Shown here piece after piece: positions 39,620 through 56,549 of a stretch of 64,000 nucleotides of DNA. The position numbers and the translations under genes are program-made. Numbering within the stretch: position 1 is the first letter of the stretch; each line of letters starts with the position of its first letter. The stretch lies in the NCBI GenBank assembly GCA_016792685.1, contig JAEULQ010000068.1, positions 32,177 through 96,176 of the forward strand, given 5' to 3'. Source of the DNA: Tabrizicola sp. (lineage in GTDB: Bacteria > Pseudomonadota > Alphaproteobacteria > Rhodobacterales > Rhodobacteraceae). The notes beneath the pieces are model-generated. The model saw nothing but the letters and a program-made list of their open reading frames with translations. It searched no databases and was not told the DNA's origin.

Positions 39620-41008
39620 TCAGGCGTGAATTGCGCCGTCGCCACAGGCAAGGGCCGCTTCGCGCACCGCTTCGCTGTAGGTCGGATGGGCATGGCAGGT
39701 CAGCGCCAGATCCTGGGCGGAAGCGCCGAATTCCATTGCGACGCAAACCTCGTGGATCAGGTCTCCTGCCGAGGGGCCGATGATATGGGCCCCGAGGATG
39801 CGGTCGGTGGCGGCGTCTGCGAGGATCTTCACGAAGCCCTCGGCCTGGAAGACGGCCTTGGCGCGGGCATTGCCCATGAAGGGGAACTTGCCGACCTTGT
39901 AGGCGCGGCCTTCCTCCTTGAGCTGTTCCTCGGTCTTGCCGACGTTCGCCACCTCGGGCGTGGTGTAGATCACGCCGGGGATCACCCCGTAGTTCACGTG
40001 GCCATGCTTGCCGGCGAGGATTTCGGCCACGGCCATGCCTTCGTCTTCCGCCTTGTGGGCAAGCATCGGTCCGGCAATGGCGTCGCCGATGGCGTAGAGG
40101 CCGGGGATATTGGTCTGGAAATGCGCGTCGGTCTTGACGGTGCCGCGGGGCCCCATCTCGACGCCGAGCGCCTCAAGGCCGAGGCCCGCCGTGTAGGGTT
40201 TGCGCCCGGTGGCGACGAGAACGATTTCGGCGTCGAGGGACGCCTCGGTGTCGTTCTTCTTCAGCTTGTAGGCGACCGTGGCGCCCTTCTTGCCCTTTGT
40301 CACCGACTGCACGGCGGCGCCGAGGATGAACTTCAGGCCCTGTTTGGACAGGATGCGCTGGAAGCTCTTGGCGACTTCGGCGTCCATGCCGGGAGTGATC
40401 GCGTAAAGATATTCGACCACGGTGACCTCGGTCCCAAGGCGGGCATAAACCGAGCCCATCTCAAGGCCGATGACGCCTGCACCGATGACGACCATGGTCT
40501 TGGGGATCTTGCCGAGGGTCAGGGCGCCCGTGGAGGTGACGATCGTCTCCTCATCCACGGTGACACCGGGGAGGCTTGAGGCCTCGGACCCGGTGGCGAT
40601 GACGATGTTCTTGGCGGAATGCACCTCGTCGCCGACCTTGACCTGTCCCGGGGCGGGGATCGTGCCCCAGCCTTTCAGCCAGGTCACCTTGTTCTTCTTG
40701 AACAGGAACTCGATCCCCTTGGTGTTGCCGGAGACGACGTCGGCCTTGTAGTCCTGCATCTTGGCCCAGTCGACCTTCGGAGCCCCGCCCATCAGGCCCA
40801 TCTTCTCGAAATTCTCATGCGTCTCGTGCAGCATATGCGTCGCGTGAAGGAGCGCCTTGGACGGGATGCAGCCGACATTGAGGCAGGTGCCGCCAAGCGT
40901 CTCGCGCCCCTCGACGACAGCGACCTTCTGGCCAAGCTGGGCTGCGCGGATCGCGGCAACGTAACCGCCGGGGCCGGCGCCGATGAAGATGGTGTCGAAT
41001 TCTGCCAT
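39620..41008 (-). CDS. lpdA: Dihydrolipoyl dehydrogenase (E3)
   Basis: Reoxidises dihydrolipoamide of the 2-oxoglutarate dehydrogenase complex with NAD. The 462-residue flavoprotein has FAD motif [18 protein letters not shown], redox disulfide Cys42/Cys47 in [19 protein letters not shown] motif [13 protein letters not shown] and the C-terminal active His-Glu region HAHPTYSE. It is the last gene of the unidirectional sucC-to-lpdA run, but four accessory genes separate it from sucB. A MAPEG gene lies 30 bases upstream. Confidence 0.97.
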
Positions 41009-41038
41009 GGGTCAGGTCCTTGGGTGGTGGGGATCGGG

Positions 41039-41434
41039 TCAGATCAGGCTGGCCAAGATCATTGTGAGGGTTGCAAAGAAGCCTACGCCCCAGATCGCCG
41101 AGCGCCAAGGGCGCCAGCCGAAAGCATAGGCGGGGATATAGAGGACGCGCGCCGCGAGGTAGGCCCAGGCGGCATATTGTGTGACATTCGTGGACTGGTC
41201 GCCGAGGGTCACAACGACCACGGCCAGGGTGAAGAGGATCAGCCCTTCGAAATGATTGTTCATCGCACGCTGCAACCGGCCGGTCAGGATCGACAGCGGG
41301 CGGGAAGGTGGGGTGTCGCGTGGGCTGGAAGTGTAGCCGGTCCCGAGCTCGATGTTGGCCGGAATGGCGAAGAGGTGAAACTGGACGGCCTGCAGAAGGC
41401 CCGCAAGGGCGAGGGCGGTAAGTTCGGACGTCAT
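41039..41434 (-). CDS. MAPEG family membrane protein
   Basis: A 131-residue, four-helix membrane protein of the MAPEG group (eicosanoid/glutathione metabolism fold). The text ELTALALAGLLQAVQFHLF, NHFEGLILFTLAVVVVTL with the conserved acidic residue, ARVLYIPAYAFGW and RSAIWGVGFFATL is typical of bacterial members. Function in bacteria is mostly unknown. Its ATG overlaps the upstream glycosyltransferase stop by 4 bp and lpdA follows after 30 bases, so it is part of the same transcript. Confidence 0.88.
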   Translation of the reverse strand: MTSELTALALAGLLQAVQFHLFAIPANIELGTGYTSSPRDTPPSRPLSILTGRLQRAMNNHFEGLILFTLAVVVVTLGDQSTNVTQYAAWAYLAARVLYIPAYAFGWRPWRSAIWGVGFFATLTMILASLI

Positions 41435-42402
41435 GCGCGGGCTCCCTTGGTCCAGCGGCGGATGGTCTGAGGCGTGAGGATCGCTTGGCGGCGGGCTTCG
41501 AACCAGGCGACGCAGCCAGCCTCGGCCTCGGCGACCCCTGGCAGGGTGCGAAGGCGGGCAAGCTCGACCTCGACTTCCGGCCAGCGGCGGAGGATGCTGT
41601 GATCCTGGCCCTCGTTCCGGTTGGCGCGGCGATGCCAGTTCGAGCCGAGTTGGTATTTGTCCGAGGGCCGCCCCGCCCCCCAACCGCGATCGTTCTTCAA
41701 GAGGAACACGTCTGTAGAGCGGATGGCATAATGGTTCACGGTAGCACCGCCGCGCATGGCCGTTGCGACGGGGCGGTAGCGCGCACGAGGCGGGCCAAGG
41801 AGTTGATCGGAGGCCAACGGCTCGCCCGCCGCGTTCACAGCGATGGGCGCGGCGATGCGGGGTGCGGTCGGCATGTGTTCCGATGCATTCTTGAAGCAGC
41901 GGAACCGGAAGAGCGACTTGAACTTGACGGTTTCCTCCTCGACCTCTGCTTCGCAGGCCGTGAAGGCACGCAGGGTCTCGCCCGGCCAGGTGGCATGGCC
42001 GTTGTCGCCGAAAGAGCGCCAGGGCAGAGCGATGGCATGGGCCTCGCCTGCGCGGGCGACAAGCGGGGCGACCGGCGCCGCACCGGGGGCGATGTTCAGG
42101 AACTCGTCGCTGTCGAGATGGGCGAGCCATTCGGCAGCTCCTGGCCGCAGGTGCTCCATGGCGCGCAGAATGCCGCGTGCTTGGGGCATGACCTCGGTTC
42201 CGGGGTTCGGCAGATGGTCAAGTGCCCCTGCCTCCGCCAGCCGATCCAGGAGAAGATCGGAGCCGTCGGTGCAGTCGTTGGAGCAGACGACGATGGGGCC
42301 GAAGCCGATGACCCGGTGATAGGCGAGCCATTCGAGGATGTGGATCCCCTCGTTGCGCATGCAACTGGCAATGGCGACCGGTGCGGATCCTGCCGGAGTC
42401 AT
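41431..42402 (-). CDS. Glycosyltransferase family 2 protein (Glyco_tranf_2_4 type)
   Basis: A 323-residue GT-A fold protein. The N-terminal motif is ASCMRNEGIHILEWLAYHRVIGF with VVCSNDCTDGSD, characteristic of PF13704. The metal-binding DxD-type site is HLDSDEFL at about residue 95. A later NHYAIRSTDVFLLKND stretch fits the acceptor domain of the family. It probably adds a sugar to a surface polysaccharide or lipid. The ATG at 42402 is chosen because the motif begins right after it. It overlaps the MAPEG gene by 4 bp. Confidence 0.82.
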   Translation of the reverse strand: MTPAGSAPVAIASCMRNEGIHILEWLAYHRVIGFGPIVVCSNDCTDGSDLLLDRLAEAGALDHLPNPGTEVMPQARGILRAMEHLRPGAAEWLAHLDSDEFLNIAPGAAPVAPLVARAGEAHAIALPWRSFGDNGHATWPGETLRAFTACEAEVEEETVKFKSLFRFRCFKNASEHMPTAPRIAAPIAVNAAGEPLASDQLLGPPRARYRPVATAMRGGATVNHYAIRSTDVFLLKNDRGWGAGRPSDKYQLGSNWHRRANRNEGQDHSILRRWPEVEVELARLRTLPGVAEAEAGCVAWFEARRQAILTPQTIRRWTKGARA

Positions 42403-42612: not shown

Positions 42613-44178
42613 CTAGACCGCCCGTTTCGCATTGCTGGCCTTGTTCGCTGCGGCTTCGAGGAAACTCTGGAAACTGTGGTTTTTGGCCAGTGCGGCGATG
42701 TTGGCGAAAACCTTTTCGACGGCCTGTTTCGTCGGCCGTGCATTGAGGTCGAAATAGTGGGTGCCCAGGATCAGCGGATCGGACATCGGTTCGGAGAAGA
42801 CGGGCTTTCCATGCAGATAGGCTTTCAGGAAGCGCGGGAATTCAGAGTATTCCCCAAACATGTAGTGAATGTTCAGAACCCCGCCTTGTCCTTTCAGGAT
42901 GTCCGACAAGGACCGCCCAAAGGTACCGTGCGGCGCGACCGAGGCAGTCCCGGATTCTTGCATGGGGCCAAGCTCCGCCCGTCTGCGGTCATTCAAGGAC
43001 CCGAAGAAGAGAGGCGGCATTTCGTTGTAGTCAAGCGCCACGGGTTCGGCGGGAAAGATGTGCGGGCCGAACTGGATGCGCTCATGCAGGTCCTGCGGAA
43101 GAAAGGCATAGGCCGGCGCATTTGTCGGGTTCAGATCGAGAAAGACATCATAGCTGCTGACCAGTCGGCGCCGGACGCGACGCTTGGGCTTGCGCCACAG
43201 GGTCTTGCCTGTGCCGTCGAGGTATTGCTCGGTCTGGATGCCAACCCGAATGCGCCCGTTTTCGACCGGATCGGAGATGGCGTGTACGCCGACATAGACG
43301 TCCATCTCGTGGCCGACGGGGCGCTGGATGCCTGCGGCCAGATCCTTGGCGAAATCCCTGAGCACGCGGTGGCCGTAGTGGAGCGTCACATCATGACAGG
43401 TCAGGCTCGCGGTGGTTTGGGGTTTTGCCGCGATGACCGGGGGGGCTGCAAGCTCCGGGTCCGGCAGAACCTCCTGAGCCGCCGCCTGAAAGGCCGGGAA
43501 CCCAGCAGCGGCGACTTCGGCCGCATCCACATAGGCAAAGCTCTGGAAGAAGCGTTCAACGCCGAAGGCTTCCAGCGACAGGTCTTTGTACTGGTCGACG
43601 ATCCGGTCGTAGTTGCTTTTGAGGGTCTGGTTCCTGGGGGAAAGGTTGGTGATGATCACCAGTCCTGTAGGTGCGCAATTCAGCACCTGAATCGTCAGAT
43701 CGGGGCGGTATTCCTGCAGGATCGGGATCAGCTTCCAGACATCGCCGGTCCAGGCCCCTCGGGGAATGTTGTCCAGATCACGCGTGGTCATGCCGTGTCC
43801 GAACGGAATGCAGTCATGCAGCGCGATGACCGATTGCGGGGTTCCGGCGGCTTCGGCGTTCATGAAGTCGCGCAGCAGGAACTCGAACAGGTGCATGCCG
43901 TCGAGGAAACTGAACGCAGGCTTGGCCTTCAGCGATTTGAGATGTCCCGCAGCGAAGAAATCATCGCTGGGCTGCTGGAACATATGCAGCTGAGGTTTGT
44001 TGCGGCTGATATCGTAGCGGATACGGAACTTTGGGTCGACCGCGATCGAGGGGCTGCTGCATTTCTCAAGCGAGCGGCCGGTCTGCGACCCGACCTCAAG
44101 ATACCATGCAAACCGGAGCTTCTGGTGCAGGGCGTCGAGGAAGTCGCGGTAATCCATGCCTTTGGCGGCGACGAACAT
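42613..44178 (-). CDS. Fusion protein: methyltransferase-24-like domain plus GT-B-like glycosyltransferase domain
   Basis: A 521-residue two-part protein. Residues about 1-235 repeat the methyltransferase-like domain of the gene at 38825-39580 (WYLEVGSQTGRSL, AVDPKF, FLDGMHLFEFLLRDF, ALHDCIPFGHGMTTRDLD). Residues about 285-521 look like the last half of a GT-B glycosyltransferase: RVGIQTEQYLDG, LFFGSLNDRRR and IHYMFGEYSEFPRFLKAYLHGKPVFSEPMSDP, as in spore-coat or capsule enzymes. A linker rich in Ala and Pro joins them. ATG at 44178 has AGGAG seven bases upstream. Likely role: methylation and glycosylation of one surface glycan. Confidence 0.78.
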   Translation of the reverse strand: MFVAAKGMDYRDFLDALHQKLRFAWYLEVGSQTGRSLEKCSSPSIAVDPKFRIRYDISRNKPQLHMFQQPSDDFFAAGHLKSLKAKPAFSFLDGMHLFEFLLRDFMNAEAAGTPQSVIALHDCIPFGHGMTTRDLDNIPRGAWTGDVWKLIPILQEYRPDLTIQVLNCAPTGLVIITNLSPRNQTLKSNYDRIVDQYKDLSLEAFGVERFFQSFAYVDAAEVAAAGFPAFQAAAQEVLPDPELAAPPVIAAKPQTTASLTCHDVTLHYGHRVLRDFAKDLAAGIQRPVGHEMDVYVGVHAISDPVENGRIRVGIQTEQYLDGTGKTLWRKPKRRVRRRLVSSYDVFLDLNPTNAPAYAFLPQDLHERIQFGPHIFPAEPVALDYNEMPPLFFGSLNDRRRAELGPMQESGTASVAPHGTFGRSLSDILKGQGGVLNIHYMFGEYSEFPRFLKAYLHGKPVFSEPMSDPLILGTHYFDLNARPTKQAVEKVFANIAALAKNHSFQSFLEAAANKASNAKRAV

Positions 44179-44272: not shown

Positions 44273-44680
44273 TCATTCGAATGTCCCCGGCAGTTTCAGG
44301 TCCAGGACAGTGAGGTTGAGCTGGAAGTAGCGTTGTTGCCAGTCGGGGTTGGCGTCGCAGAGTTGCCGGACATCCTCGAATGATGTGTCGGGGGCAGGGA
44401 GAAGGGCCTCGGGCTTTGCGGCCGCGGTGAAGGCCGCAATGGCCTCGTCCGGGACATCTTGAGCGGCCAGGATCGCGGCGGCGGCGGTGGTGTCGCGCTG
44501 CCAGTTGGTCAGGATCTGGGCATGGATCGCAGGGTCGAGGGCGGAGCAGGTGAGGAAGACGCGATGCTCGGCGATCGCCTGCGAGAGAAGGATATCGGCC
44601 GCGGGGGTGCCGGTCGGGATGACCTGGGCAGTGGCCTGGGTGGTGAAGGCGAGGGCCAGCAGGAAGCCCCCCACCCCCAT
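44273..44680 (-). CDS. Small secreted protein of unknown function
   Basis: A 135-residue protein with signal peptide MGVGGFLLALAFTTQATAQ and a mature part holding two cysteines (TCSALDPAI, RQLCDANPDW). I recall similar secreted proteins in Rhodobacteraceae but not a function. The frame stays open further upstream, but that part is translated from a GC-rich intergenic repeat. The start at 44680 is therefore preferred; its apparent ribosome-binding site GGGGAAGGG belongs to the same repeat. Confidence 0.65.
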   Translation of the reverse strand: MGVGGFLLALAFTTQATAQVIPTGTPAADILLSQAIAEHRVFLTCSALDPAIHAQILTNWQRDTTAAAAILAAQDVPDEAIAAFTAAAKPEALLPAPDTSFEDVRQLCDANPDWQQRYFQLNLTVLDLKLPGTFE

Positions 44681-44832: not shown

Positions 44833-45180
44833 TCAAGAACTTCCTCGCGGCGACCTCCAAGCCATCCACAAACAATAGAGCACCACCAAGGACATAAGAC
44901 CTGCCCAGATGTAGGGGCGGGTTGATTTGTCGTAGGCTAGGTATGCTGGTTGGTCCTGCAGTTTTGCCAAACCGACGAAGATCAAGGAGAGTAAGGAGCA
45001 CAAAGCAGCAAGCCAAGAATACATCTCTCGGGGATTCCGCTTGATGTAGTCATTCCGTTCATCTTTCGACATCTCGCGCCAACGCTTTCGTGACCCCTTC
45101 GCATCCTGCATTACAGGAGGCGACGCTGGCTGGCTTGCCTCTGGATCATTCTTCAAAGGCTCGCGATCCGATGGAAGCAT
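44833..45180 (-). CDS. Two-pass membrane protein, AT-richer than its neighbours
   Basis: A 115-residue protein with a hydrophilic, basic front (residues 1-50: GSRKRWREMSKDERNDYIKRNPREM) and two membrane segments (about 53-70 and 88-107). No family recognised. Base composition is visibly poorer in GC than the flanking suc genes, suggesting acquisition. It sits between sucB (19 bases upstream on the transcript) and the repeat region. Given the immunity-like genes nearby, a membrane immunity role is possible but only by context. Confidence 0.55.
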   Translation of the reverse strand: MLPSDREPLKNDPEASQPASPPVMQDAKGSRKRWREMSKDERNDYIKRNPREMYSWLAALCSLLSLIFVGLAKLQDQPAYLAYDKSTRPYIWAGLMSLVVLYCLWMAWRSPRGSS

Positions 45181-45199: not shown

Positions 45200-46414
45200 T
45201 CACAAATCCATCAACAGCCGACGTGGGTCCTCCAGCGCCTCTTTCACTCGCACCAGGAACGTCACCGCGCCCTTGCCGTCGACGATGCGGTGGTCGTAGC
45301 TGAGCGCAAGGTACATCATCGGGCGGATGACGATCTGGCCCCCGACGACAACCGGGCGGTCCTGGATCTTGTGCATGCCGAGGATGCCGGACTGCGGGGG
45401 GTTGAGGATGGGGGAGGACATCAGGCTGCCGTAGACGCCGCCGTTCGAGATGGTGAATGAGCCGCCCTGCATCTCGGCCATCGACAGTTTCCCGTCGCGG
45501 GCGCGGAGGCCGAGTTCGGCGATCTTCTTTTCGATGGCGGCGAAGCCCATCTGGTCGGCGTCGCGGACCACGGGGACGACGAGGCCCGAGGGGGTGCCGA
45601 CCGCCACGCCCATGTGGACGTAGTTCTTGTAGACGATGTCCTGGCCGTCGATCTCGGCGTTGACCTCCGGCACTTCCTTCAGCGCGTGGCAGCAGGCTTT
45701 CACGAAGAAGGACATGAAGCCCATCTTTACGCCGTGCTTCTTCTCGAAGGCGTCCTTGTAGGTGTTGCGGAGTTCCATGATGCCGGACATGTCGACCTCG
45801 TTATAGGTCGTGAGCATCGCGGCGGTGTTCTGGGCGTCCTTGAGGCGGCGGGCGATAGTGGCGCGAAGGCGGGTCATCTTGACCCGTTCCTCACGCGCCG
45901 CGTCCTCGGCCGGGATCGGCGCGCGGGGCAGCGCGGCGGGGGCCGGAGCCGGGGCGGCGGCCGCCGCAGCAGCGCCAGAGGCACCTGCGACAGTGCGGGC
46001 CACATCTTCCTTCATGATGCGTCCATCACGCCCGGTGCCCTGGACCTGATCCGGGGTGAGGTTCGCTTCGGCCATCGCCTTCTTCGCGGCGGGCGCGTCC
46101 TCGACGGCTTTGGCGGGGGCCGGCGTCGGGGCAGCTTCGGCCTTGGCTTCAGCTTTCGGCGCGGGGGCGGCTGCGGCGGCGCCCTCGGTCACGATCGCAA
46201 GCCGCGCATTTGCGGCGACGGTCGTGCCTTCGGGCGCAAGGATTTCGGCCAGGACCCCGGTCACCGGGCTTGGCACTTCGACCGAGACTTTGTCGGTCTC
46301 GAGCTCGCAGAGCATTTCGTCCTGCTTCACCGCGTCGCCCGGCTTCTTGAACCAGGTGGACACGGTGGCCTCGGACACGGATTCGCCAAGGGCGGGTACC
46401 ATCACGTCAGTCAT
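45200..46414 (-). CDS. sucB: Dihydrolipoamide succinyltransferase (E2 of 2-oxoglutarate dehydrogenase)
   Basis: Transfers the succinyl group from E1 to CoA. The 404-residue protein has one lipoyl domain with Lys42 in [14 protein letters not shown], an Ala/Pro/Glu-rich linker, a peripheral-subunit-binding domain ([29 protein letters not shown]), a second Ala-rich linker and the catalytic domain with His375 in SYDHRIVDG. Complete. In relatives it follows sucA closely; here two Imm11-like genes lie between. Confidence 0.97.
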
Positions 46415-46485: not shown

Positions 46486-47157
46486 TCAGACCAACCCTTG
46501 TTCAAAGAAGTCCAGCTTCTGGATCTTCCCTTTGCGGAACGCTTGATACAGGTCTTCGGAGCAGAACCATTCGTCGCCGTAGTCGGCTGCCCGCCAGAGG
46601 TGACGGCCCTGCACCACCGCAGCGTTGATGGCCAGCTTGTTGGCCGACGCCGCGGAATAGAAAGGCACCGGAAAGCCAGGCTTGCCGACCCAGTTCGGGT
46701 TGACGCCGCTCGGATACCAGGGTGATTTCTCGACGTTGATTGACCCCACCAGGTCTGCACCCCAGCCCAGGCCAAAGTACCGATGCTCGGCAGCGCGGCC
46801 ATCCTTGTAGGTGACCGGGATTTCCGCAGTGAACGCGTGGACACCCGGTTCGAGCGTCTCGATGGCGGAACGGACGGTCTCGCTTACGGCGACCCAGCCG
46901 ATCGCGTTTTGCAGGATGTGCGGCAGGGCCTTGATCCCATAGGCCTCTCGCAGGGCGCTTGGCACCAGGGCGCCTTTCTCAAGCGACTTGCGGTCTGCGC
47001 ACCATTGGCCGACCCGGGGCTGATGGAACGACGCGATAACGGCCTTGCGGTCGACGTCGCTGTCGAAGACCGGACTGGCGGCCTTCGTGGGCTGAGGGCA
47101 AAAGCGGTAGACCTTGGTGCTGATGGCCATGCGCGGGGCGTCCTCAAACTGGGTCAT
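46486..47157 (-). CDS. Imm11/DUF1629-like protein, second of a tandem pair
   Basis: A 223-residue protein about half identical to the gene just upstream (for example LPHILQNAIGWVAVSE, LEPGVHAFTAEIPVTYKDGR, EHRYFGLGWGADL). The pattern of an N-terminal VSETVR...LEPGVHxF block, a middle region, then HLWRAxDYxxEWFCSEDLYQAFRK recalls the Imm11 (DUF1629) immunity family of polymorphic toxins. This match is from memory and moderate. The start at 47157 uses an AGGGG site; MAISTKVYRF at 47130 aligns with the paralogue start. No toxin gene is adjacent. It lies between sucA and sucB. Confidence 0.65.
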   Translation of the reverse strand: MTQFEDAPRMAISTKVYRFCPQPTKAASPVFDSDVDRKAVIASFHQPRVGQWCADRKSLEKGALVPSALREAYGIKALPHILQNAIGWVAVSETVRSAIETLEPGVHAFTAEIPVTYKDGRAAEHRYFGLGWGADLVGSINVEKSPWYPSGVNPNWVGKPGFPVPFYSAASANKLAINAAVVQGRHLWRAADYGDEWFCSEDLYQAFRKGKIQKLDFFEQGLV

Positions 47158-47158
47158 G

Positions 47159-47812
47159 TCAGACCAGCCCCTGTTCATGGAAGGTCAGGTGGCGGACCTT
47201 GTACTTGCGGAACGCCTCGCGCAGGGCTTCGGAGCAGAACCAGGTCCCTGCCACGCTATAGTCGATTGCCCGCCAGAGGTGGTGCCCGTCAACGACCGAG
47301 GCATTGATCGCCAGCAGGTTTGCACCCCCGCAGGAATAGAAGGGGACGCCCTTGAAGTAAGGGTTCGTTGCCAGTTCCGGATTGATCCCCCTGGGATACC
47401 AGGGCGAGCGCTCGACATTGATGGTGCCCGTCAGGTCGGCCCCCCAGCCCAAGCCAAAGTAGCGATGCTCGGAGGGGCGACCGTCCTTGTAGGTGACGCG
47501 AATTTCCGGCGTGAAGGCATGGACGCCCGGCTCAAGCGTCTCAAGGACGCTGCACACCGTCTCGCTGACGGCAACCCAGCCCACAGCACCACTCAGGATG
47601 TGGGGCAGGGTCTTGATGCCATATCCCTCGCGGATTGTCTTCGGAACCAGCGCCCCGTGTTCAAGCGACCGCCGATCCCCGCACCATTGCCCGACTGTCG
47701 GCTGATGAAAGCTTGCAACGACGTCGTTTCGCGAAACGTCGCCGTCGAAGACCGGATTTCCGGACTTCGTGGTGTCGGTCTTGAACAGGTAGACCTTCGG
47801 GTCCTTGGCCAT
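47159..47812 (-). CDS. Imm11/DUF1629-like protein, first of a tandem pair
   Basis: A 217-residue protein starting MAKDPKVYLFKTDTTKSGNPVFDGDV. It shows the same motif order as its neighbour: FHQPTVGQWCGDRRSLEHGALVP, LPHILSGAVGWVAVSETV, LEPGVHAFTPEIRVTYKDGR, FGLGWGADLTGTINVERSPWYP and HLWRAIDYSVAGTWFCSEALREAFRK. The ending fits the VSEALRxA(I/F) core of Imm11-type immunity proteins. It follows sucA by 31 bases and overlaps or abuts the second copy. Both are orphans without a toxin nearby. Function otherwise unknown. Confidence 0.65.
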   Translation of the reverse strand: MAKDPKVYLFKTDTTKSGNPVFDGDVSRNDVVASFHQPTVGQWCGDRRSLEHGALVPKTIREGYGIKTLPHILSGAVGWVAVSETVCSVLETLEPGVHAFTPEIRVTYKDGRPSEHRYFGLGWGADLTGTINVERSPWYPRGINPELATNPYFKGVPFYSCGGANLLAINASVVDGHHLWRAIDYSVAGTWFCSEALREAFRKYKVRHLTFHEQGLV

Positions 47813-47843: not shown

Positions 47844-50810
47844 TCAGCCAAGCCCAAGGGCCTGGGCGACGAGGGTTTGCTGTTCATACTTGTGGCGGGA
47901 GGCGAGGCCCGTGGCGGGCGACGCGCTGGCCTTGCGGCCGGCATAGGACATCCGGGTGGTCTTGCCGCGGATCTTGGTCAGGATCGTCTCGATTTCAGGC
48001 TCGATGAAGGACCAGGCGCCCTGGTTCTTCGGCTCTTCCTGGCACCAGACGAATTCGGCCTTCGGGAAACGGCCAAGCTCTTGCGTGAGCGAGATCGTCG
48101 GCACCGGGTAAAGCTGTTCGATGCGCAGGAGATAGGTGTCTTCGAGACCCTGCGCATCACGTTCGGCCAGAAGGTCGTAGTAGACCTTGCCCGAGCAGAG
48201 GACGACGCGCTTGATCTTGTCGTCGGCCTTGAGCTTGGCGGTCGAGTTGCCCTTTTGCGCGTCGTCCCACAGGACGCGGTGGAAGGTTGAGCCATCGGTG
48301 AAATCCTCGGCCCGGCTGATTGCCATCGGATGACGAAGAAGCGACTTCGGCGTCATCAGGATCAGCGGTTTCCGGTAAGTCCGATGGAGTTGGCGGCGCA
48401 GAATGTGGAAGTAGTTCGCCGGGGTCGTGCAGTTGGCGACGATCCAGTTGTCCTCGGCGCTGAGCTGGAGGAAGCGCTCCAGGCGAGCGGAGGAGTGTTC
48501 CGGGCCCTGTCCCTCGAACCCATGGGGCAGAAGGACGACAAGGCCGGACATGCGCAGCCACTTGCTCTCGCCCGAGTTCACGAACTGGTCGAACATGATC
48601 TGCGCGCCGTTGGCGAAGTCGCCGAACTGGGCCTCCCAGAGGGTGAGCGCGTTCGGTTCCGAGAGCGAGTAGCCGTACTCGAACCCGAGGACAGCGTATT
48701 CCGAGAGCATCGAGTCGATGACCTCATACCGCGCCTGGCCGGGGCGGATGTGGTTCAGCGGGTAGTGGCGTTCCTCGGTCGTCTGGTCGATCCAGCCAGA
48801 GTGGCGCTGGGAGAAGGTGCCGCGGGTGCAGTCCTGCCCCGAGAGGCGGACCGGGAAGCCTTCCAGCTGCAGCGAACCGAAGGCCAGCGCCTCGGCCGTG
48901 GCCCAGTCGAAGCCTTGACCTTTTGCAAACATCTCCCGCTTGGCTTCCAGCTGGCGGCCCACGGTCTTGTGCAAATCGAACCCGTCGGGCACGCGGGTCA
49001 AGGCCGCACCCACCTCGGCCAGGGTTTCGGCCTTGATCCAGGTTTCGCCACGCTGGTAGTTGTTCAGATCCTTGGTCTGCAGGTTCTTCCAGCGACCATC
49101 CAGCCAGTCGGCCTTGTTTGGCAGGAAAGCCTTGCCGGCCTCGAACTCCTCGTTGAGGCGGGCCTGGAAGGCGGCCTTCATGTCCTCGATCTCGCCCTCG
49201 GGGATCAGGCCATCCTTGACCAGACGCTCGGTGTAAAGCTGAAGCGTGGTCTTCTGCTTGCGGATACGGTTGTACATCGCCGGGTTAGTAAACATCGGCT
49301 CGTCGCCTTCGTTGTGACCAAAGCGGCGGTAGCAGAAGATGTCGATGACCACGTCCTTGTGGAACTTCTGACGGAACTCGGTCGCGACCTTGGCGGCGTG
49401 GACCACCGCCTCCGGGTCGTCACCGTTGACGTGGAAGATCGGCGCCTCGACCATGAGCGCAATGTCGGTCGGGTAAGGCGAGGTGCGGCTGAAGGCCGGG
49501 GCGGTGGTAAAGCCGATCTGGTTGTTGACGATGATATGGATGCAGCCGCCGGTGCGGTGGCCCTTGATGCCTGACAGTTGCAGGCACTCCGCCACCACGC
49601 CCTGACCGGCAAAGGCCGCATCACCGTGGAGAAGGATCGGCAGGCAGGCGATGCGCTCGGCGGTGTCGTTCATCTGGTCCTGCTTGGCGCGGACCTTGCC
49701 CAGGACGACCGGGTTTACGGCCTCCAAGTGGCTTGGGTTAGCCGTCAGCGAAAGGTGGACCTTGTTGCCGTCGAACTCGCGGTCCGACGAGGCGCCGAGG
49801 TGGTACTTCACGTCGCCCGAACCATCCACGTCCTCGGGCTTGTAGGAGCCGCCCTGGAATTCGTGGAAGATCGCCCGGTAGGGTTTCTGCATCACGTTCG
49901 CCAGGATGTTCAGGCGCCCGCGGTGCGGCATGCCGATGATGATGTCCTTCACCCCCAAAGCGCCACCGCGCTTGATGATCGCCTCCATCGCGGGGATTAC
50001 CGCTTCGCCGCCATCAAGGCCAAAGCGCTTGGTGCCCATGTATTTGACATGGAGAAATTTCTCGTAGCCCTCGGCCTCGACGAGCTTGTTCAGGATCGCC
50101 TTGCGGCCCTCGCGGGTGAACTGGATTTCCTTGCCGTAGCCTTCGATCCGCTCTTTCAGCCAGGCGGCCTGTTCGGGGTCCGAGATATGCATGTACTGGA
50201 GCGCGAAAGTGCCGCAGTAGGTGCGTTTCACGATGTCGATGATCTGCCGCATCGAGGCATGGGTCAGGCCCAGGACGTTGTCGATGAAGATCGGCCGGTC
50301 CATGTCGGCCTCGGTAAAGCCATAGGACGCCGGGTCAAGCTCGGGGTGGCTGCCGCGTTCGGCAAGGCCCAGCGGGTCGAGGTCGGCGGCGAGGTGGCCG
50401 CGGATCCGGTAGGCGCGGATGATCATCAGGGCGCGGATGCTGTCGAGCACCGCGCGTTGGATCTGTTCTTGGCTAAGGGCGACGCCCGCATCGGCCGCCT
50501 TGGCGGCGATCTTTTCGCCGGCCGCCTTTGCCTCTTTCGCGGGCGAGGCCGCCCATTCGCCGGTCAGCGCGCCGGTCAGGTCGTCCTGCGGGGCAGGTGG
50601 CCAGTCCGGCCGGGACCAACTTGGCCCGCTTGCGGCGCGCTTGGCGTCGACTTCACTGTCCCCGAGGGCCCTGAAGAACTCAGCCCATGCGGCATCGACG
50701 CTGTTCGGGTCGGTAGCATAGCGAGCGTGGAGCTGGTCGACATAGTCTGCGTTGGCGCCGTCGAGGAAGGACGAGGCGTGGAATTGCGAGTTTGGGGATT
50801 GTTCGGTCAT
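47844..50810 (-). CDS. sucA: 2-oxoglutarate dehydrogenase E1 component
   Basis: Decarboxylates 2-oxoglutarate with thiamine diphosphate and passes the succinyl group to SucB lipoyl. The 988-residue protein is complete: N-terminal E2-binding segment (SFLDGANADYVDQLHARYATDPNSVDAAWAEFF), MPHRGRLNILANV, HGDAAFAGQGVVAECLQLS with the ThDP metal ligand region, IVNNQIGFTT and the C-terminal EEPKNQGAWSF. The ATG at 50810 follows GAGGTAACTCC. The GT2 gene ends 100 bases upstream, an interruption of the usual sucD-sucA junction. Confidence 0.97.
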   Translation of the reverse strand: MTEQSPNSQFHASSFLDGANADYVDQLHARYATDPNSVDAAWAEFFRALGDSEVDAKRAASGPSWSRPDWPPAPQDDLTGALTGEWAASPAKEAKAAGEKIAAKAADAGVALSQEQIQRAVLDSIRALMIIRAYRIRGHLAADLDPLGLAERGSHPELDPASYGFTEADMDRPIFIDNVLGLTHASMRQIIDIVKRTYCGTFALQYMHISDPEQAAWLKERIEGYGKEIQFTREGRKAILNKLVEAEGYEKFLHVKYMGTKRFGLDGGEAVIPAMEAIIKRGGALGVKDIIIGMPHRGRLNILANVMQKPYRAIFHEFQGGSYKPEDVDGSGDVKYHLGASSDREFDGNKVHLSLTANPSHLEAVNPVVLGKVRAKQDQMNDTAERIACLPILLHGDAAFAGQGVVAECLQLSGIKGHRTGGCIHIIVNNQIGFTTAPAFSRTSPYPTDIALMVEAPIFHVNGDDPEAVVHAAKVATEFRQKFHKDVVIDIFCYRRFGHNEGDEPMFTNPAMYNRIRKQKTTLQLYTERLVKDGLIPEGEIEDMKAAFQARLNEEFEAGKAFLPNKADWLDGRWKNLQTKDLNNYQRGETWIKAETLAEVGAALTRVPDGFDLHKTVGRQLEAKREMFAKGQGFDWATAEALAFGSLQLEGFPVRLSGQDCTRGTFSQRHSGWIDQTTEERHYPLNHIRPGQARYEVIDSMLSEYAVLGFEYGYSLSEPNALTLWEAQFGDFANGAQIMFDQFVNSGESKWLRMSGLVVLLPHGFEGQGPEHSSARLERFLQLSAEDNWIVANCTTPANYFHILRRQLHRTYRKPLILMTPKSLLRHPMAISRAEDFTDGSTFHRVLWDDAQKGNSTAKLKADDKIKRVVLCSGKVYYDLLAERDAQGLEDTYLLRIEQLYPVPTISLTQELGRFPKAEFVWCQEEPKNQGAWSFIEPEIETILTKIRGKTTRMSYAGRKASASPATGLASRHKYEQQTLVAQALGLG

Positions 50811-50910
50811 GGAGTTACCTCGGAGGGAGGGGGGGTCGTGGCAGTTGGCGCCAGGGGTACCAGGCAATGCCGCGTCCTAGCGACAGTCAGTAAGATCTCT
50901 TGTAGGGGGG

Positions 50911-52080
50911 TCATGTTGCGGCACTCCCGGCATCTGGGGGCTGGGCGCCGGGGCCAGGCCTTGGCACTGGTGTGCCCCAAAGCAGCATGGCTTGCCGTCG
51001 CTCGTACCAGGCTTGCACCGTCTCGCGCGATTGTAGCAAAAGCCCAGGCAGCCAGAGACCTGCATAAAGCGCGCCACGGAACTGCGGGAAGGTAAAGCGG
51101 CCCTTCAGCCCATCCTTCAGGAACTCTGCCAGGCAGCGGCGCAGCCACAGGAGCACGATGGCGGGCAGATCACGCAGCGGTTTTCGGGTGTTCTTCCGAG
51201 CAAAATAGGAAATGTTCAGGATCGTCAGCGCGGTCAGTTCGAAGCGCTTCATTCGCGAGACTGGTGTTTCCGCATGGTAGAGGAAAGCATCGTCGGCCAG
51301 AAGGTTCCGTCCATGCCGAAGGAACCGGTACGATGCATCGCGGTCCTCACCGGGCGAATAGGACAGAAGTCCGCCATCAAAGAGTTCGGCCACGGCGACC
51401 TTGCGACGCACGGTCAGCGTGCAGCCCCCGATGAAGGTATTGGGCTGCGTCTTGGGCGGCAGGGGCAGATGCTCCCAGCGTTTCCAGAGCGGACCGTCAT
51501 AGGCGATGAAGTTGCCTTCGACGGACATCATCAGAATCTCGCGATAGATGAATCGCTTCAGCCAGGACGACTGACGGGTCGCCTCTTGCATGTTGCGCTC
51601 TTCAATCTGCGATGCGACCACCTGGTCGGCGACCAACTCCGGTTTCCTCAAGGTCATTGAGGCCTCGACCGCCGCGATAGTTTCATCGCCGTCGGCCTCG
51701 TAGACGGCTAGAATCTTCTCGGCGCAATCGGGATGCATGAAACTGTCATCGTCGATCATGACAAGGATATCGGCCGTCGCTGCGCGGATGCCCAGGTTGC
51801 GCTGAGCGGATGTCGAACGCCGCGTGGCTGGCAGATAGGTCAGTGGCACGCCCGCCGGGGCGGTCAGCGCTTGGATCAACGCATGGTGGTCGCGCCAGGC
51901 GTCGCTTGCATCGACGATCACGATTTCCGTCGGTGGCCGCGTCTGGGCCAGGGCACATAGGACGCAGAACTCTAGGATCTTCGGTCGGTCAAGCGTAACG
52001 ACGCACAGCGACCAAGTCAGCCGTGCCGGGTGGTCGCCCGATCCCGCCGCTGCCTCCGACTGATTGCCTGTCTCGGACAT
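50911..52080 (-). CDS. Glycosyltransferase family 2 protein
   Basis: A 389-residue GT-A enzyme. Strand motifs LCVVTLDRP and EIVIVDASD bind the nucleotide; the metal site is Asp110-112 in VMIDDDSF; and the acceptor site has GEDRDASYRFLRHG. Two C-terminal hydrophobic stretches (about 300-320 and 345-360) suggest membrane association. It probably builds a surface glycan. Its ATG lies only 4 bases after the stop of the sucD-tail remnant (52085-52285), so the remnant could act as a coupled leader frame. It sits between sucD and sucA. Confidence 0.85.
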   Translation of the reverse strand: MSETGNQSEAAAGSGDHPARLTWSLCVVTLDRPKILEFCVLCALAQTRPPTEIVIVDASDAWRDHHALIQALTAPAGVPLTYLPATRRSTSAQRNLGIRAATADILVMIDDDSFMHPDCAEKILAVYEADGDETIAAVEASMTLRKPELVADQVVASQIEERNMQEATRQSSWLKRFIYREILMMSVEGNFIAYDGPLWKRWEHLPLPPKTQPNTFIGGCTLTVRRKVAVAELFDGGLLSYSPGEDRDASYRFLRHGRNLLADDAFLYHAETPVSRMKRFELTALTILNISYFARKNTRKPLRDLPAIVLLWLRRCLAEFLKDGLKGRFTFPQFRGALYAGLWLPGLLLQSRETVQAWYERRQAMLLWGTPVPRPGPGAQPPDAGSAAT

Positions 52081-52084: not shown

Positions 52085-52285
52085 TCAGCCGATCGCCTTG
52101 AGCACCGCTTCGCCCGGGGCCGCCGGGCTGTCGGTGGCCCCGACCCCGGCGATTTTCATCGCTTCGATCTTCGAGCCCGCATCGCCTTTGCCGCCCGCCA
52201 CGATAGCCCGGGCGTGGCCCATGCGGCGGCCGTGGGGTGTGGTGTGAGCCGCGATGAAACCGGCGGTGGGGGATCGATTGGTCAT
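52085..52285 (-). pseudogene. Duplicated 3' end of sucD fused to a sucA-like translation start
   Basis: A 66-codon open frame. After MTNRS, its text [30 protein letters not shown]... follows the last 60 residues of SucD ([30 protein letters not shown]...), roughly 85 percent identical at DNA level by eye. The part includes the phospho-His loop but no CoA- or nucleotide-binding half, so it cannot be a working subunit. The bases around its ATG, GAGGTAACCCCATGACC, match the sucA start GAGGTAACTCCATGACC except for one base. It reads as a joint left by duplication or insertion. Confidence 0.8.
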
Positions 52286-52325: not shown

Positions 52326-53093
52326 TCACAGCCCGGCCTTGCGGGAAAGCGTGCGGACAAGGCGGGTCGTCAGCCTCTGGCTGCGGCCCATCGGCGGCAG
52401 GTCCTTGGTGGACAGGGTGGGCAGGTCAGGCAGCGCAGCAAGCGACTGGAGCGATCGGACCCTCTCGTAGCCGAAGCGTTCGAAGTCTTCGGCATAGACC
52501 GTCTCAATCAGGGCGAGGGTTTCATCGGTCGGGACGGGCGCGGCCTCGATGCCCCGCCAGCGCCCGACGTTCTTTACAGCAATATGCCTCGGGCCGTCGC
52601 TCTTGCCGTCAAGCTCATCGAGATACGGGATAACCTGATCAAGCCCATCCTCCAGTCGGAAGATCCGTGATCCTTCGGGCACAAAGCTGGACATCGGGGC
52701 AAAGTGTCCGCCGTAACGAAAGCTGTCGGAAAGAACCCAGCTCGTCGCCTCCTGGAACCAGGTGTTGAAATCGGTATTGAGCGGCAGATACCGGTGGTGG
52801 TCGCGCGCGAAACAGAAGGCACTGATCACGCGCCGCACTGGGTGACGGACGACCGCAAATGACGAGCTAAGCCATTCGGAGGGAATCATGTGCTTGAGCG
52901 TCGCTGCGGGCATATGGATCGGCGAGGTCCGGGACCAGCGTTGCTGAGGTTCCAACTTGAACCGGTCCGGCTCGCGCAGGGCGATGGGGCCGAAACGCTC
53001 CATCAAGTAAGAGTCCACCGACACGCCGCCGCATTTCGGCACGTGGGCAAAGTAGTGCAGCTTGGCGCCGATCCGGAAGATGGGCATGCGCAT
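52326..53093 (-). CDS. Sulfotransferase family protein
   Basis: A 255-residue protein of the Sulfotransfer_2-like group that transfers sulfate from PAPS. The 5'-phosphosulfate loop is HVPKCGGVSVDSYL (residues 17-30, the PKxGGxS motif). The 3'-phosphate motif is SFAVVRHPVRRVISAF (about 78-93), with RHP typical. Likely acceptors are surface polysaccharides or lipids made by the neighbouring glycosyltransferases, which is inference. It lies 17 bases after sucD and before the sucD-tail remnant. Confidence 0.85.
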   Translation of the reverse strand: MRMPIFRIGAKLHYFAHVPKCGGVSVDSYLMERFGPIALREPDRFKLEPQQRWSRTSPIHMPAATLKHMIPSEWLSSSFAVVRHPVRRVISAFCFARDHHRYLPLNTDFNTWFQEATSWVLSDSFRYGGHFAPMSSFVPEGSRIFRLEDGLDQVIPYLDELDGKSDGPRHIAVKNVGRWRGIEAAPVPTDETLALIETVYAEDFERFGYERVRSLQSLAALPDLPTLSTKDLPPMGRSQRLTTRLVRTLSRKAGL

Positions 53094-54067: not shown

Positions 54068-54547
54068 TCAGCCGCCCGCGAACTTGAAATGCCAGGCCGA
54101 AGTGCCCTCGCCCTCGCAGGTCGGGGTCGGCCCGCCGGAATGCAGGGTTGCGACTGCGCCATTCGACAGGGTCTTCTGCATGCAGCCATCCGCATCGGTG
54201 CCCTCGGCGGTGATCTCGATCCCGGTATTGCCGCCCATCATGAAGAGGTTGAAGGCCATCTCGGCGTCGCCGGTGCCGATGGCGCTGCTTTCAACATGGC
54301 AGTAGCCGACATCCTTGGTCACAACGCCCGAAGTCGGCCCGGCAGGGGGCATGAAATTGGTGACGCCGGCAGCGGCATCCTCGGCCGAGGTCCAGTCATA
54401 ATCGGCAAGTTGGGCCACGGTGGTATCGGCCTTGCCTTCCCCCAGCATGCAGAAGCCGATTCCGTCGATCATCTGGTAGACGGGATCCGGGTCCTGCGCG
54501 AAGGCGGGGGTGGCGGCGAGGGCGGCAAGCAGAACAAGCTTTTTCAT
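54068..54547 (-). CDS. Secreted protein of unknown function
   Basis: A 159-residue protein with a clear Sec signal peptide MKKLVLLAALAATPAFAQ (cut after AFA). The mature part holds four cysteines (GIGFCMLG, GYCHVESS, DGCMQKT, TPTCEGEG), compatible with two disulfides in the periplasm. I recognise it only as a conserved Rhodobacteraceae-type secreted protein. It lies between the sucD 5' remnant and the full sucD. Confidence 0.7.
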   Translation of the reverse strand: MKKLVLLAALAATPAFAQDPDPVYQMIDGIGFCMLGEGKADTTVAQLADYDWTSAEDAAAGVTNFMPPAGPTSGVVTKDVGYCHVESSAIGTGDAEMAFNLFMMGGNTGIEITAEGTDADGCMQKTLSNGAVATLHSGGPTPTCEGEGTSAWHFKFAGG

Positions 54548-54753: not shown

Positions 54754-54754
54754 G

Positions 54755-55318
54755 TCACTCTCCTGCTGACGGTTTTGACCCTGTGGGTCCAATAGGGGCG
54801 GCCTTGGCAGCGAGCCAATGGTCATGCAGCGTCGCATAAAGCTGTTCGTTGGAAAGGCTTAGCACACTGGCATTTAGAGTTACGCCCGGCCCTGCGGCCT
54901 TTGCCTCGGCCCAGTTTGCAAGGCGGTTTGCTGGGTGGCGTCGTGTTTTCGCTACCGTTTCATTGGCTAAATCGACTTTGACGTACCGGTTGCCGCTTAG
55001 GCTTACACTCCGAACATCGGTGACCAAGCTCCACGGAATCTCGTCCGGTGAATAGGCGGGATAAGTGAAGCCAACCTTGGTCAAGACAAGCGCCGTTCTG
55101 GCGCCGAAGAGAAGCTTCCAGAGCATCGCTGCACAGCCGAGGCCGAAGAAGCCTATGGTGACCCAACCCGCAACTGGCGCATAGTAACCGCGTCGCGTCT
55201 CGGTGAAGTCGACGGTAACCAGCCATATCCCGAACATCACTAGCAAAGCCGATCCCCCGAGCAACAGCGCCAGCTTGCGGGTCGAGAATGCAATCCTCAT
55301 GGGGTGGGTCCCGGTCAT
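54755..55318 (-). CDS. STM3941-like membrane protein
   Basis: A protein of about 187 residues with two membrane segments near the N terminus (about 14-35 and 47-68) and a soluble C-terminal domain ([37 protein letters not shown]), a PH-like pattern. This layout matches the STM3941 family, small proteins often found as orphans near toxin-immunity loci. Base composition is visibly AT-richer than the suc genes. Start codon is uncertain: ATG at 55318 or at 55300 ([14 protein letters not shown], closest to family starts). It lies between sucC and the sucD remnant. Confidence 0.65.
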
Positions 55319-55355
55319 GGTAGTCACCAGGCCAGAGCCGATTGTATCGCGCCGT

Positions 55356-56549
55356 TCACCCGCGCACCGCCTTCACGATCTTCTCGGCCCCGTCCTTCAG
55401 GTCGTCGGCGGCGATGACGTTCAGGCCGGACTTGCGGATGATGTCCTTGCCAAGTTCGACGTTGGTGCCTTCCAGACGCACGACCAGCGGGACCTTGAGG
55501 CCCACTTCCTTGACGGCCGCGATCACGCCCTCGGCGATGATGTCGCAGCGCATGATGCCGCCGAAGATGTTGACGAGGATGCCCTTCACGTTCGGGTCAC
55601 TGGTGATGATCTTGAAGGCCTCGGTCACCTTTTCCTTGGTGGCGCCGCCGCCGACGTCAAGGAAGTTGGCAGGCTCGGCGCCGTAAAGCTTGATGATGTC
55701 CATCGTGGCCATGGCCAACCCTGCGCCGTTGACCATGCAGCCGATCTCGCCATCCAGAGCGATGTAGTTCAGGTCGAACTTCGAGGCGGCGAGTTCTTTC
55801 GGATCTTCCTCGGTCTCATCGCGCAGCGCGGCGATGTCGGGGTGGCGATAGATCGCGTTGCCGTCAAAGCCCATCTTGGCGTCGAGGAGGCGGAGGGTGC
55901 CGTCCTTCAACACGCAGAAGGGGTTGATCTCCAGCATGTCCATGTCCTTGTCGAGGAACAGCTGGTAGAGCTTTTTCACGATCCCGACGCAGGATTTGAC
56001 CTGCGCGCCAGTGAGCCCGAGCGCAAAGGCGACGCGGCGACCGTGGAAGTCCTGCAAGCCCGTGGCCGGGTCGATGGTGAAGGTGTGGATCTTCTCGGGC
56101 GTGTCGTGGGCGACGTCCTCGATCGACATGCCGCCTTCGGTCGAGGCGACGATCGAGATGCGCGAGGTGCCGCGGTCGATCAGGAAGGCCAGGTAGAATT
56201 CCCGGTCGATGTCGGAGCCGTCTTCGATGTAGATGCGGTTGACCTGCTTGCCTGCGGGGCCGGTCTGGATGGTGACGAGGGTGCGGCCCAGCATCTGGCG
56301 GGCAAACTCGGCGGCTTCACCGACCGAGCGGGCGAGGCGGACGCCGCCCTTTTCCCCGGCCTCAGGTTCCTTGAAGTGGCCCTTGCCGCGGCCCCCGGCG
56401 TGGATCTGCGACTTGACCACCCAGAGGGGACCGTCAAGCTCTCCCGCGGCGGTCTTGGCGTCTTCGGCCTTCAGGACGACACGGCCGTCCGAGACCGGGA
56501 TGCCGTAGCTGCGCAAAAGCTCTTTCGCCTGGTATTCGTGAATATTCAT
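55356..56549 (-). CDS. sucC: Succinyl-CoA synthetase beta subunit
   Basis: Nucleotide-binding partner of SucD. The 397-residue protein starts [19 protein letters not shown] and has the ATP-grasp pattern ([40 protein letters not shown]) and the C-terminal CoA-ligase part [28 protein letters not shown]. It is the first gene of the minus-strand run. The long upstream region with three TGTGATCAC sites probably carries the promoter of the whole cluster. Confidence 0.97.

What the first reader, a model, noticed from the sequence alone, without database searches (positions are those of the whole stretch)
39620..56549. TCA operon with accessory genes inserted at every junction
Seen: from sucC to lpdA, 17 kb on one strand, the five core genes sucC, sucD, sucA, sucB and lpdA alternate with eleven accessory genes, all in the same direction, and there is no junction without cargo. 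The cargo is of recognisable kinds: glycosyltransferases, a sulfotransferase, a methyltransferase fusion, immunity-like proteins, small membrane or secreted proteins and a MAPEG protein. Known: in many alphaproteobacteria these five genes lie close together. Inference: gene junctions of a strongly expressed housekeeping operon serve as repeated landing sites for genes that profit from steady expression without their own promoter.
Basis: partly seen in the sequence, partly recalled or inferred. Interest (0 to 1): 0.78.

Follow-up and report, generated by a model that had tools for sequence, protein, structure and literature searches.

The report
Swappable genes inside energy-metabolism operon
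In this bacterium and its family, the spaces between essential citric-acid-cycle genes hold changing accessory genes, and in some genomes broken-off ends of the essential genes mark where versions from different species were probably spliced together.

Summary
On the minus strand sucC, sucD, sucA, sucB and lpd stand in that order, and eleven co-directed accessory ORFs fill all four junctions. Of 115 family loci with all five genes, only this one has 450 bp or more at every junction. Core order never changes; junction content does, even between sister species 95.8% identical in nuo/sdh genes. MAPEG is an old operon member, not cargo.

Seams of this kind were found in 7 of 139 suc loci. Pooled, they differ from the intact gene at silent sites more than self-duplication and decay predicts (P = 0.0013). 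Cargo families of the junctions each keep to one junction.

Best reading: cargo rides as junction alleles through recombination in flanking core genes, and faulty joining stacks two alleles. Free landing sites for promoterless genes are only partly supported; expression benefit is untested.

Inserted genes in suc and sdh operons were published for Roseobacter in 2012 (PMC3305630). New here: the seams, junction-bound families, and Tabrizicola, nuo, atp and ribosomal cases.

The parts
55356..56549 (-). sucC, core
   Evidence: Pfam ATP-grasp_2 E 4.6e-73, Ligase_CoA
54755..55300 (-). C-D cargo 1: membrane protein, STM3941 family (the ORF may start at 55318 or 55327)
   Evidence: NCBIfam NF041635 E 1.1e-20; last 102 bp 90% identical to the stretch directly before sucD in L011
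54675..54753 (-). sucD 5' remnant (nt 1-79), seam between the two C-D cargo genes
   Evidence: blastn 91.1% to own sucD, E 7e-27; alignment
54068..54547 (-). C-D cargo 2: 159-aa protein with signal-peptide-like start (by eye), family found only at this junction
   Evidence: 16 places in 12 of 32 whole genomes, 15 between sucC and sucD and one after sucC at a contig end
53111..53995 (-). sucD, core, intact
   Evidence: Pfam CoA_binding E 2.4e-32, Ligase_CoA
52326..53093 (-). D-A cargo 1: sulfotransferase
   Evidence: Pfam Sulfotransfer_2 E 1.1e-8; relatives after sucD in L091 (= L225) and L018
52091..52270 (-). sucD 3' remnant (nt 697-876; its ORF runs on to the stop at 52085), seam between the two D-A cargo genes
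   Evidence: blastn 85.0% to own sucD, E 1.5e-54
50911..52080 (-). D-A cargo 2: GT2 glycosyltransferase
   Evidence: Pfam Glycos_transf_2 E 4.4e-15; relatives in D-A of 5 genus loci
47844..50810 (-). sucA, core (ORF call starts at 50867; ATG at 50810)
   Evidence: Pfam E1_dh, Transket_pyr, OxoGdeHyase_C
47159..47812 (-). A-B cargo: Imm11-family protein, copy 1
   Evidence: Pfam Imm11 E 4.1e-12
46486..47178 (-). A-B cargo: Imm11-family protein, copy 2 (69% aa identity to copy 1)
   Evidence: Pfam Imm11 E 4.8e-13; in 31 other genus genomes only matches of E 2e-7 or weaker, in 4 genomes
45200..46414 (-). sucB, core
   Evidence: Pfam 2-oxoacid_dh E 1.2e-85
44833..45180 (-). B-lpd cargo: 115-aa membrane-like ORF
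   Evidence: weak DUF4131 E 0.001, below its cut-off; no relative at E 1e-6 in the other suc loci searched
44273..44680 (-). B-lpd: 135-aa protein with signal-peptide-like start (by eye), genus-wide
   Evidence: in B-lpd of 15 of 17 spanned genus loci
42613..44178 (-). B-lpd cargo: 521-aa protein, methyltransferase-like N-terminus; C-terminus glycosyltransferase-like only by eye
   Evidence: Methyltransf_24 E 0.0092, below cut-off; relatives in B-lpd of 4 genus loci
41431..42402 (-). B-lpd cargo: glycosyltransferase Glyco_tranf_2_4
   Evidence: Pfam E 6.8e-16; relatives in B-lpd of 10 genus loci
41039..41434 (-). MAPEG protein, ancestral operon member
   Evidence: Pfam MAPEG E 3.4e-25; 17 of 17 genus loci and 90 of 99 other family loci
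39620..41008 (-). lpd (E3), core
   Evidence: Pfam Pyr_redox_2 E 1.6e-69

Best explanation
The spaces between core genes hold junction alleles: accessory genes flanked by highly conserved core genes that serve as homology arms. Incoming DNA from a relative pairs with the resident operon through a core gene. When both ends recombine cleanly, the junction content is swapped or emptied. When one end joins illegitimately inside or near the next core gene (homology-facilitated illegitimate recombination, or unequal exchange between two alleles), both cargo genes are kept, separated by a broken end of a core gene. Here C-D reads [STM3941 gene]-[sucD 5' scrap]-[159-aa gene]-sucD, and D-A reads sucD-[sulfotransferase]-[sucD 3' scrap]-[GT]. 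Shown: fixed core order, variable content that is mostly bound to its junction, seams, and species-like silent divergence of the seams. Inferred: the molecular route, the vehicle (a gene transfer agent is one candidate), and any selection for co-expression.
For: Both arrangements nested in W exist singly in relatives. The STM3941 gene leads straight into sucD in L011, and a GT of the same family follows sucD in L002, L008 and L015; the 159-aa gene precedes sucD in L016 and L018, and the sulfotransferase follows sucD in L018 and L091. W's cargo on the two sides of each seam is unrelated by BLASTP (E 0.42 and 7.5). L112 has sucC-X-[sucD 5']-[sucC 3']-X'-sucD with X and X' unrelated. L227 has a C-D seam before the same gene family as W and L020. 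Silent-site excess: pooled pN 0.104, pS 0.357; self-duplication with neutral decay predicts 61% nonsynonymous differences, 48% observed, P = 0.0013, 0.003 with L043 included. W's 3' remnant differs from W's sucD by dS 0.40, as sucD of seven other loci does over that stretch (0.33-0.58). At D-A, G003 and G031 differ by a whole GT gene and the near flanks drop to 90.3% against 95.3% further off. GTA_TIM (PF13547) is in 29 of 32 genus genomes.
Against: Seams are seen in only 7 of 139 suc loci, so most loaded junctions show none. The flank dip appears at D-A only: C-D (95.0 vs 95.2) and B-lpd (94.0 vs 95.8) show little, and the all-pairs comparison shows an effect at D-A alone. The D-A dip (89.4% over 900 bp) is just under the 5th percentile of background windows (90.1) but above their minimum (84.7). 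W's operon shows no single donor along its length. L043's lpd scrap (dN 0.09, dS 0.13) fits a recent self-duplication, and L112's sucC scrap alone (0.27, 0.50) fits decay as well. Tandem copies of the 159-aa family (L003, L016, L018) show that plain duplication also happens. PF13547 was not found in the window's own, incomplete genome. Four of the 15 directional hits are in a nuo junction tangled with a paralogue; without nuo it is 11 to 0 at 1e-6 and 12 to 1 at 1e-3. The sdh hit in L207 and the ribosomal hit in L220 concern ORFs that I did not identify.
Confidence: 0.64

Rival explanations
1. Vertical operon with local tandem duplication and loss: cargo and seams arose inside each lineage by duplicating pieces of the operon, which then decayed or were deleted.
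For: Tandem copies in L003, L016, L018, L038, L048 and the Imm11 pair; L043's lpd scrap looks recent and self-derived; junction-bound families also follow from vertical descent.
Against: Cargo on the two sides of a seam is unrelated in W and in L112. Silent-site divergence of the seams is species-like. A similar C-D content (72% of its length alignable) occurs in G031 and G027, which are far apart in the nuo/sdh tree.
Confidence: 0.18
2. One reading: promoterless genes repeatedly insert by non-homologous routes into any junction of a highly expressed operon and are kept for the expression.
For: 183 of 186 called cargo ORFs co-directed; loaded junctions in other housekeeping operons too; RT-PCR co-transcription of some inserts in Ruegeria pomeroyi (PMC3305630, passages and section 11).
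Against: 18 of 18 multi-member families keep to one junction; the 159-aa family was found nowhere else in 32 genomes; seams made of core-gene ends point to core-gene recombination. The first capture of each family could still have happened this way.
Confidence: 0.13
3. The cargo is functionally tied to the TCA enzymes (assembly, regulation) and varies only because it evolves fast.
For: MAPEG and the 135-aa protein are stable neighbours.
Against: Pfam matches of the cargo are glycosyltransferases, sulfotransferase, Imm11, cupin, glyoxalase, hydrolase and domains of unknown function; the C-D junction is 5 bp in 5 of 21 genus loci.
Confidence: 0.05

Closest known systems
Non-conserved genes inside sucCD, sucAB and sdhCDAB operons of Roseobacter (PMC3305630, 2012; passages and section 11 read)
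   Same: Same operons, variable poorly conserved inserts between core genes, some shown co-transcribed and detected as proteins; the high-expression hypothesis is stated there as an open question.
   Different: That paper calls inserts in sucCD exclusive to Roseobacter; the parts I read give no insertion mechanism. Here inserts occur in Tabrizicola and across the family sample, also in nuo, atp and ribosomal operons, with core-gene seams.
Type VI secretion effector-immunity arrays in Vibrio cholerae (PMC5361080, 2017; passages and section 13 read)
   Same: Conserved anchor, incoming variable gene, older gene kept and pushed aside; homology-facilitated illegitimate recombination proposed, with shifted 3' ends of older effectors.
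   Different: There the anchor belongs to a secretion cluster and the cargo is a toxin-immunity pair; here anchors are metabolic core genes, several junctions of one operon are involved and cargo is mixed.
Merodiploids made by transformation in Streptococcus pneumoniae (PMC3784515; abstract and outline read)
   Same: A short incoming fragment can give a recombinant chromosome that keeps both copies of a region around an essential gene.
   Different: Those duplications are about 100-900 kb and use repeats; the seams here are under 200 bp.
Integron cassette arrays (recalled)
   Same: Promoterless cargo stacked behind a shared promoter.
   Different: No integrase among Pfam matches of W's cargo; attC sites were not searched for. 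Order is set by core genes.

Membership tests
Variable-insert TCA operon as in Roseobacter (PMC3305630) | Conserved sucC-sucD-sucA-sucB core order | tested here: met
   Order kept in all 138 of 139 family loci that hold more than one core gene
Variable-insert TCA operon as in Roseobacter (PMC3305630) | Non-conserved co-directed genes between core genes, differing between relatives | tested here: met
Variable-insert TCA operon as in Roseobacter (PMC3305630) | Co-transcription of insert and core | not testable with these tools
   No RNA data; the consensus terminator scan found 12 sites against 13.6 in shuffles, which decides nothing
Homology-facilitated illegitimate recombination product | A broken or duplicated end of the anchor gene beside the new content | tested here: met
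   W, L020, L053, L112, L153, L227 and own sdhB; breakpoints were not checked for microhomology
Homology-facilitated illegitimate recombination product | The two copies come from different lineages | tested here: met
   Silent-site excess, pooled P = 0.0013, W alone P = 0.025; L043 does not fit
Homology-facilitated illegitimate recombination product | Mosaic tract in the core gene beside the change | tested here: inconclusive
   Suggested at D-A of G003/G031, not at C-D
Integron or site-specific integrative element | Recombinase gene | tested here: not met
   None among Pfam matches of W's cargo or among 25 of the 33 families matched by 53 cargo representatives
Integron or site-specific integrative element | One fixed attachment site | tested here: not met
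   sucD 5' scraps end at different positions in W, L020, L053, L153 and L227; attC-like sites were not searched for
Gene-transfer-agent delivery | GTA genes in the lineage | tested here: inconclusive
   PF13547 in 29 of 32 genus genomes, absent from the incomplete own genome; delivery untested

The most novel reading that the evidence does not exclude
Housekeeping operons of Rhodobacteraceae work as addressed cassette arrays without an integrase: each conserved core gene is both a working gene and the address by which one junction's accessory genes are exchanged, stacked and emptied between species, probably delivered in small packets by gene transfer agents. Long duplicated ends loop out again, so only short seams survive.
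Probability: 0.3. Interest if true: 0.76.

Novelty: new variant of a known kind. Interest (0 to 1): 0.57.

Why it matters
It offers a readable record (core-gene scraps) of how accessory genes can enter essential operons without mobile elements, bears on a question left open in 2012, and predicts that conserved gene pairs can serve as exchange sites for the genes between them. If gene transfer agents carry the DNA, their part in gene exchange becomes testable at defined loci.

Tried and rejected
Ruled out or set aside. (a) The second sucB-like stretch in the A-B interval of most other genera is the second lipoyl domain of sucB by my reading of its position and match; these rows were dropped from the counts. 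(b) Hits of the 194-aa nuo ORF to nearby copies look like a tandem paralogue and were dropped from the count: 22 upstream-3', 5 upstream-5', 1 downstream-5' on the operon strand and 1 on the other strand. Kept, they would add 23 to the reverse placements and 5 to the predicted ones, so the test leans on that exclusion for nuo. (c) That one event split a resident sucD into both W remnants: it fits, but two one-sided events fit as well. The sister clade of W (G029, G030) carries the 159-aa gene, and G030 the sulfotransferase, so which allele is resident is undecided. (d) Relocation of the suc operon away from sdh/mdh: the same upstream genes and an mdh-like gene (by eye) are present in W and relatives. 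(e) A donor scan of W along the operon gave a mosaic with no clear donor. (f) Promoter and terminator scans equal shuffles. (g) An idea that overlapping or very short junctions never take cargo is wrong: nuo junctions that overlap in most genomes, and the 5-bp C-D junction, are loaded in others. (h) No structure prediction was run. Gene names in the nuo, atp, sdh and ribosomal sets are recalled from order and length, not from a call. The C-D states for one search were set by hand, and no shuffle control was run on them.
Full report
What is there. The five core genes lie on the minus strand between 56549 and 39620 in the order sucC, sucD, sucA, sucB, lpd. Eleven accessory ORFs fill the four junctions, all in the same direction. 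The junctions measure 1360, 2243, 1429 and 4191 bp. The window is part of a draft genome of 3.58 Mb in 136 contigs, 88.9% complete.

How unusual it is. Core order is unbroken in all 138 family loci (of 139) that hold more than one of the five genes. Junction lengths vary widely. C-D reaches 450 bp or more in 16 of 26 genus loci, 49 of 110 loci elsewhere in the family and 1 of 19 loci of other alphaproteobacterial families. D-A does so in 11 of 22, 65 of 108 and 2 of 17. A-B does so in 1 of 19, 0 of 104 and 0 of 17; the single case is this window. B-lpd, which holds the old MAPEG gene in this family, does so in 18 of 18, 96 of 99 and 4 of 12. Of 115 family loci with all five genes, only this one passes at every junction.

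Which cargo is old. Tblastn of the eleven proteins against the suc loci (E 1e-6) finds MAPEG before lpd in 17 of 17 spanned genus loci and 90 of 99 others, and the 135-aa protein in 15 of 17 genus loci and none elsewhere. The rest are patchy: Glyco_tranf_2_4 in 10 genus loci, the 159-aa protein in 9, the D-A glycosyltransferase in 5, the 521-aa protein in 4 (B-lpd), the sulfotransferase in 2 (plus 1 at a contig end), the STM3941 protein in 2. The Imm11 pair and the 115-aa ORF were found in none. In 31 other genomes of the genus the Imm11 protein had only matches at E 2e-7 or weaker, in 4 genomes.

Turnover. On a tree of 18 genomes built from nuo and sdh genes, the C-D content needs 10 changes, and five other traits (loaded or empty C-D, loaded or empty D-A, D-A glycosyltransferase, 521-aa protein, B-lpd glycosyltransferase) need 4 or 5 each (states set by hand, no shuffle control). 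The sister species G003 and G031 are 95.8% identical in those genes, yet C-D is 5 against 377 bp, D-A 1180 against 39 and B-lpd 1502 against 3769. A similar C-D content (72% of its length alignable) is shared by G031 and G027, only 83.3% identical in nuo/sdh.

Cargo is mostly bound to its junction. Clustering 186 called ORFs gave 18 multi-member families besides the 55-ORF cluster that holds MAPEG, and each keeps to one junction. The 159-aa family was sought in 32 whole genomes: 16 places in 12 genomes. By coordinates, 15 lie between sucC and sucD; the 16th (G008) follows sucC and a sucD-start scrap and the contig ends before sucD. Exceptions: relatives of the 521-aa protein lie after lpd in three genus loci and before sucC in three others, one sulfotransferase relative lies before sucC, and W has a relative of the 521-aa protein's first half just after lpd on the other strand (56% over 227 aa).

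The seams. Two truncated sucD copies sit in the window: nt 1-79 (91%) between the two C-D cargo genes and nt 697-876 (85%) between the two D-A cargo genes. The stretch before the 5' scrap matches the stretch directly before sucD in L011, and the gene after the 3' scrap belongs to the family that follows sucD in L002, L008 and L015; the inner pair belongs to families that flank sucD in L018. The cargo genes on the two sides of each seam are unrelated. Thus two junction alleles look nested. Similar scraps occur in L020, L053, L112, L153, L227 (sucD 5'), L112 (sucC 3') and L043 (lpd 3'), and after sdhB in the window's own genome. In the suc operon that is 7 of 139 loci. The 1e-6 line was drawn after seeing the list. 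Rows for sucB upstream and for the 194-aa nuo paralogue were dropped first, and 4 of the 15 come from a nuo junction tangled with that paralogue; without nuo it is 11 to 0, or 12 to 1.

Where the second copy came from. If a gene end is copied within a genome and then decays, silent differences per site should build up about twice as fast as amino-acid-changing ones, because only the intact copy is constrained. Pooled over eight scraps (L043 left out; L227, L156, L207, L220 and the nuo scraps not used) the silent share is larger: 60 nonsynonymous and 67 synonymous differences, 48% nonsynonymous against 61% expected, P = 0.0013; with L043 P = 0.003; W alone P = 0.025. The 3' scrap of W is as far from W's own sucD at silent sites (dS 0.40) as sucD of seven other loci is over the same stretch (0.33-0.58). 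Most of the divergence was therefore probably gathered while both copies were working genes in different lineages. That the scraps are themselves under selection as peptides is not excluded, and the test treats differences as independent.

Recombination tracts: mixed. Around D-A the G003/G031 identity falls to 90.3% near the junction against 95.3% further away, but not around C-D (95.0 vs 95.2) and little around B-lpd (94.0 vs 95.8); over all pairs only D-A shows the effect. The 900-bp D-A flank (89.4%) lies just under the 5th percentile of background windows (90.1%), whose minimum is 84.7%. At genus-level divergence such tracts are hard to see.

Not only this operon. In the same genus sdhA-sdhB is 605-3747 bp in 20 loci; atpG-atpD is about 20 bp in 14 of 20 genomes and 385-825 bp in 6; 8 of 14 nuo junctions exceed 500 bp in some genome; and 3 of 19 junctions in the ribosomal set are variable while 16 stay under 150 bp (gene names by order, recalled). 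Some junctions stay tight in every genome seen, but others that overlap or are a few bases long in most genomes are loaded in a few, so tightness alone does not protect a junction.

Mechanism. Core genes about 90% identical across the genus act as homology arms. Clean exchange swaps or empties a junction; one-sided exchange with an illegitimate end stacks two alleles and leaves a core-gene scrap. Seams under 200 bp may be the survivors, because longer direct repeats would recombine and loop out the cargo (inference). No recombinase was found among the cargo. A gene transfer agent is a plausible vehicle: PF13547 is in 29 of 32 genus genomes though not in this incomplete one, and no suc junction measured exceeds 4.3 kb, about the packet size recalled for the Rhodobacter capsulatus agent.

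Cargo is coding. Pairwise dN/dS is 0.10 for the closest sulfotransferase pair, 0.13-0.20 for the three closest pairs of the 159-aa protein, 0.20-0.30 for the genus pairs shown of the two B-lpd enzymes, and 0.26 between the two Imm11 copies; core genes lie at 0.04-0.10. The 135-aa protein gives 0.22-0.46 and the D-A glycosyltransferase 0.34-0.47, and two of its relatives (L008, L015) hold a stop inside the aligned stretch. Silent sites are near saturation in several pairs.

Prior knowledge. PMC3305630 (2012; passages and one section read) reported variable inserted genes in sucCD, between sucCD and sucAB, and in sdhCDAB of Roseobacter, showed by RT-PCR that some are co-transcribed and that one is independently transcribed, and asked whether they are opportunistic genes profiting from high expression. 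It held the sucCD inserts to be exclusive to Roseobacter; the present data extend them. PMC5361080 (passages and section 13 read) proposed homology-facilitated illegitimate recombination for stacked immunity genes. My searches, of which I saw the listings, showed no paper on core-gene seams in housekeeping operons; the library holds open-access papers only.

Noticed in passing
38825-39580 (+): A convergent Methyltransf_24-like gene just after lpd, 56% identical over 227 aa to the first half of the 521-aa cargo protein in the B-lpd junction; three genus loci have a relative of that protein after lpd.
   Followed up: partly
46486-47812: A tandem pair of Imm11 (predicted immunity) proteins in the sucA-sucB junction, the only A-B junction of 450 bp or more in 123 family loci; no toxin partner was looked for.
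   Followed up: partly
L188 (own genome, sdh locus): A 3' scrap of sdhB (nt 662-760, 94%) 765 bp after sdhB, so the same kind of seam occurs at a second operon of this genome.
   Followed up: partly
L024, L026, L027, L030 and most later loci up to L060, sucB start: Most other genera carry a second lipoyl-like stretch at the sucB start (A-B interval about 300-380 bp); the window's genus lacks it.
   Followed up: no
L003, L004, L013, L014, D-A junction: A similar short inverted repeat followed by T-rich sequence directly after sucD in genomes that are scattered on the tree.
   Followed up: no
L069-L087, nuo locus, 194-aa ORF: An ORF in the nuo region with repeated partial copies nearby; could be a further exchange hot spot or a fast-evolving repeat gene.
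   Followed up: no
ribosomal set L208-L221: Variable inserts between (by order, names recalled) rplW and rplB and between rplP and rpmC, inside an otherwise tight ribosomal operon.
   Followed up: no
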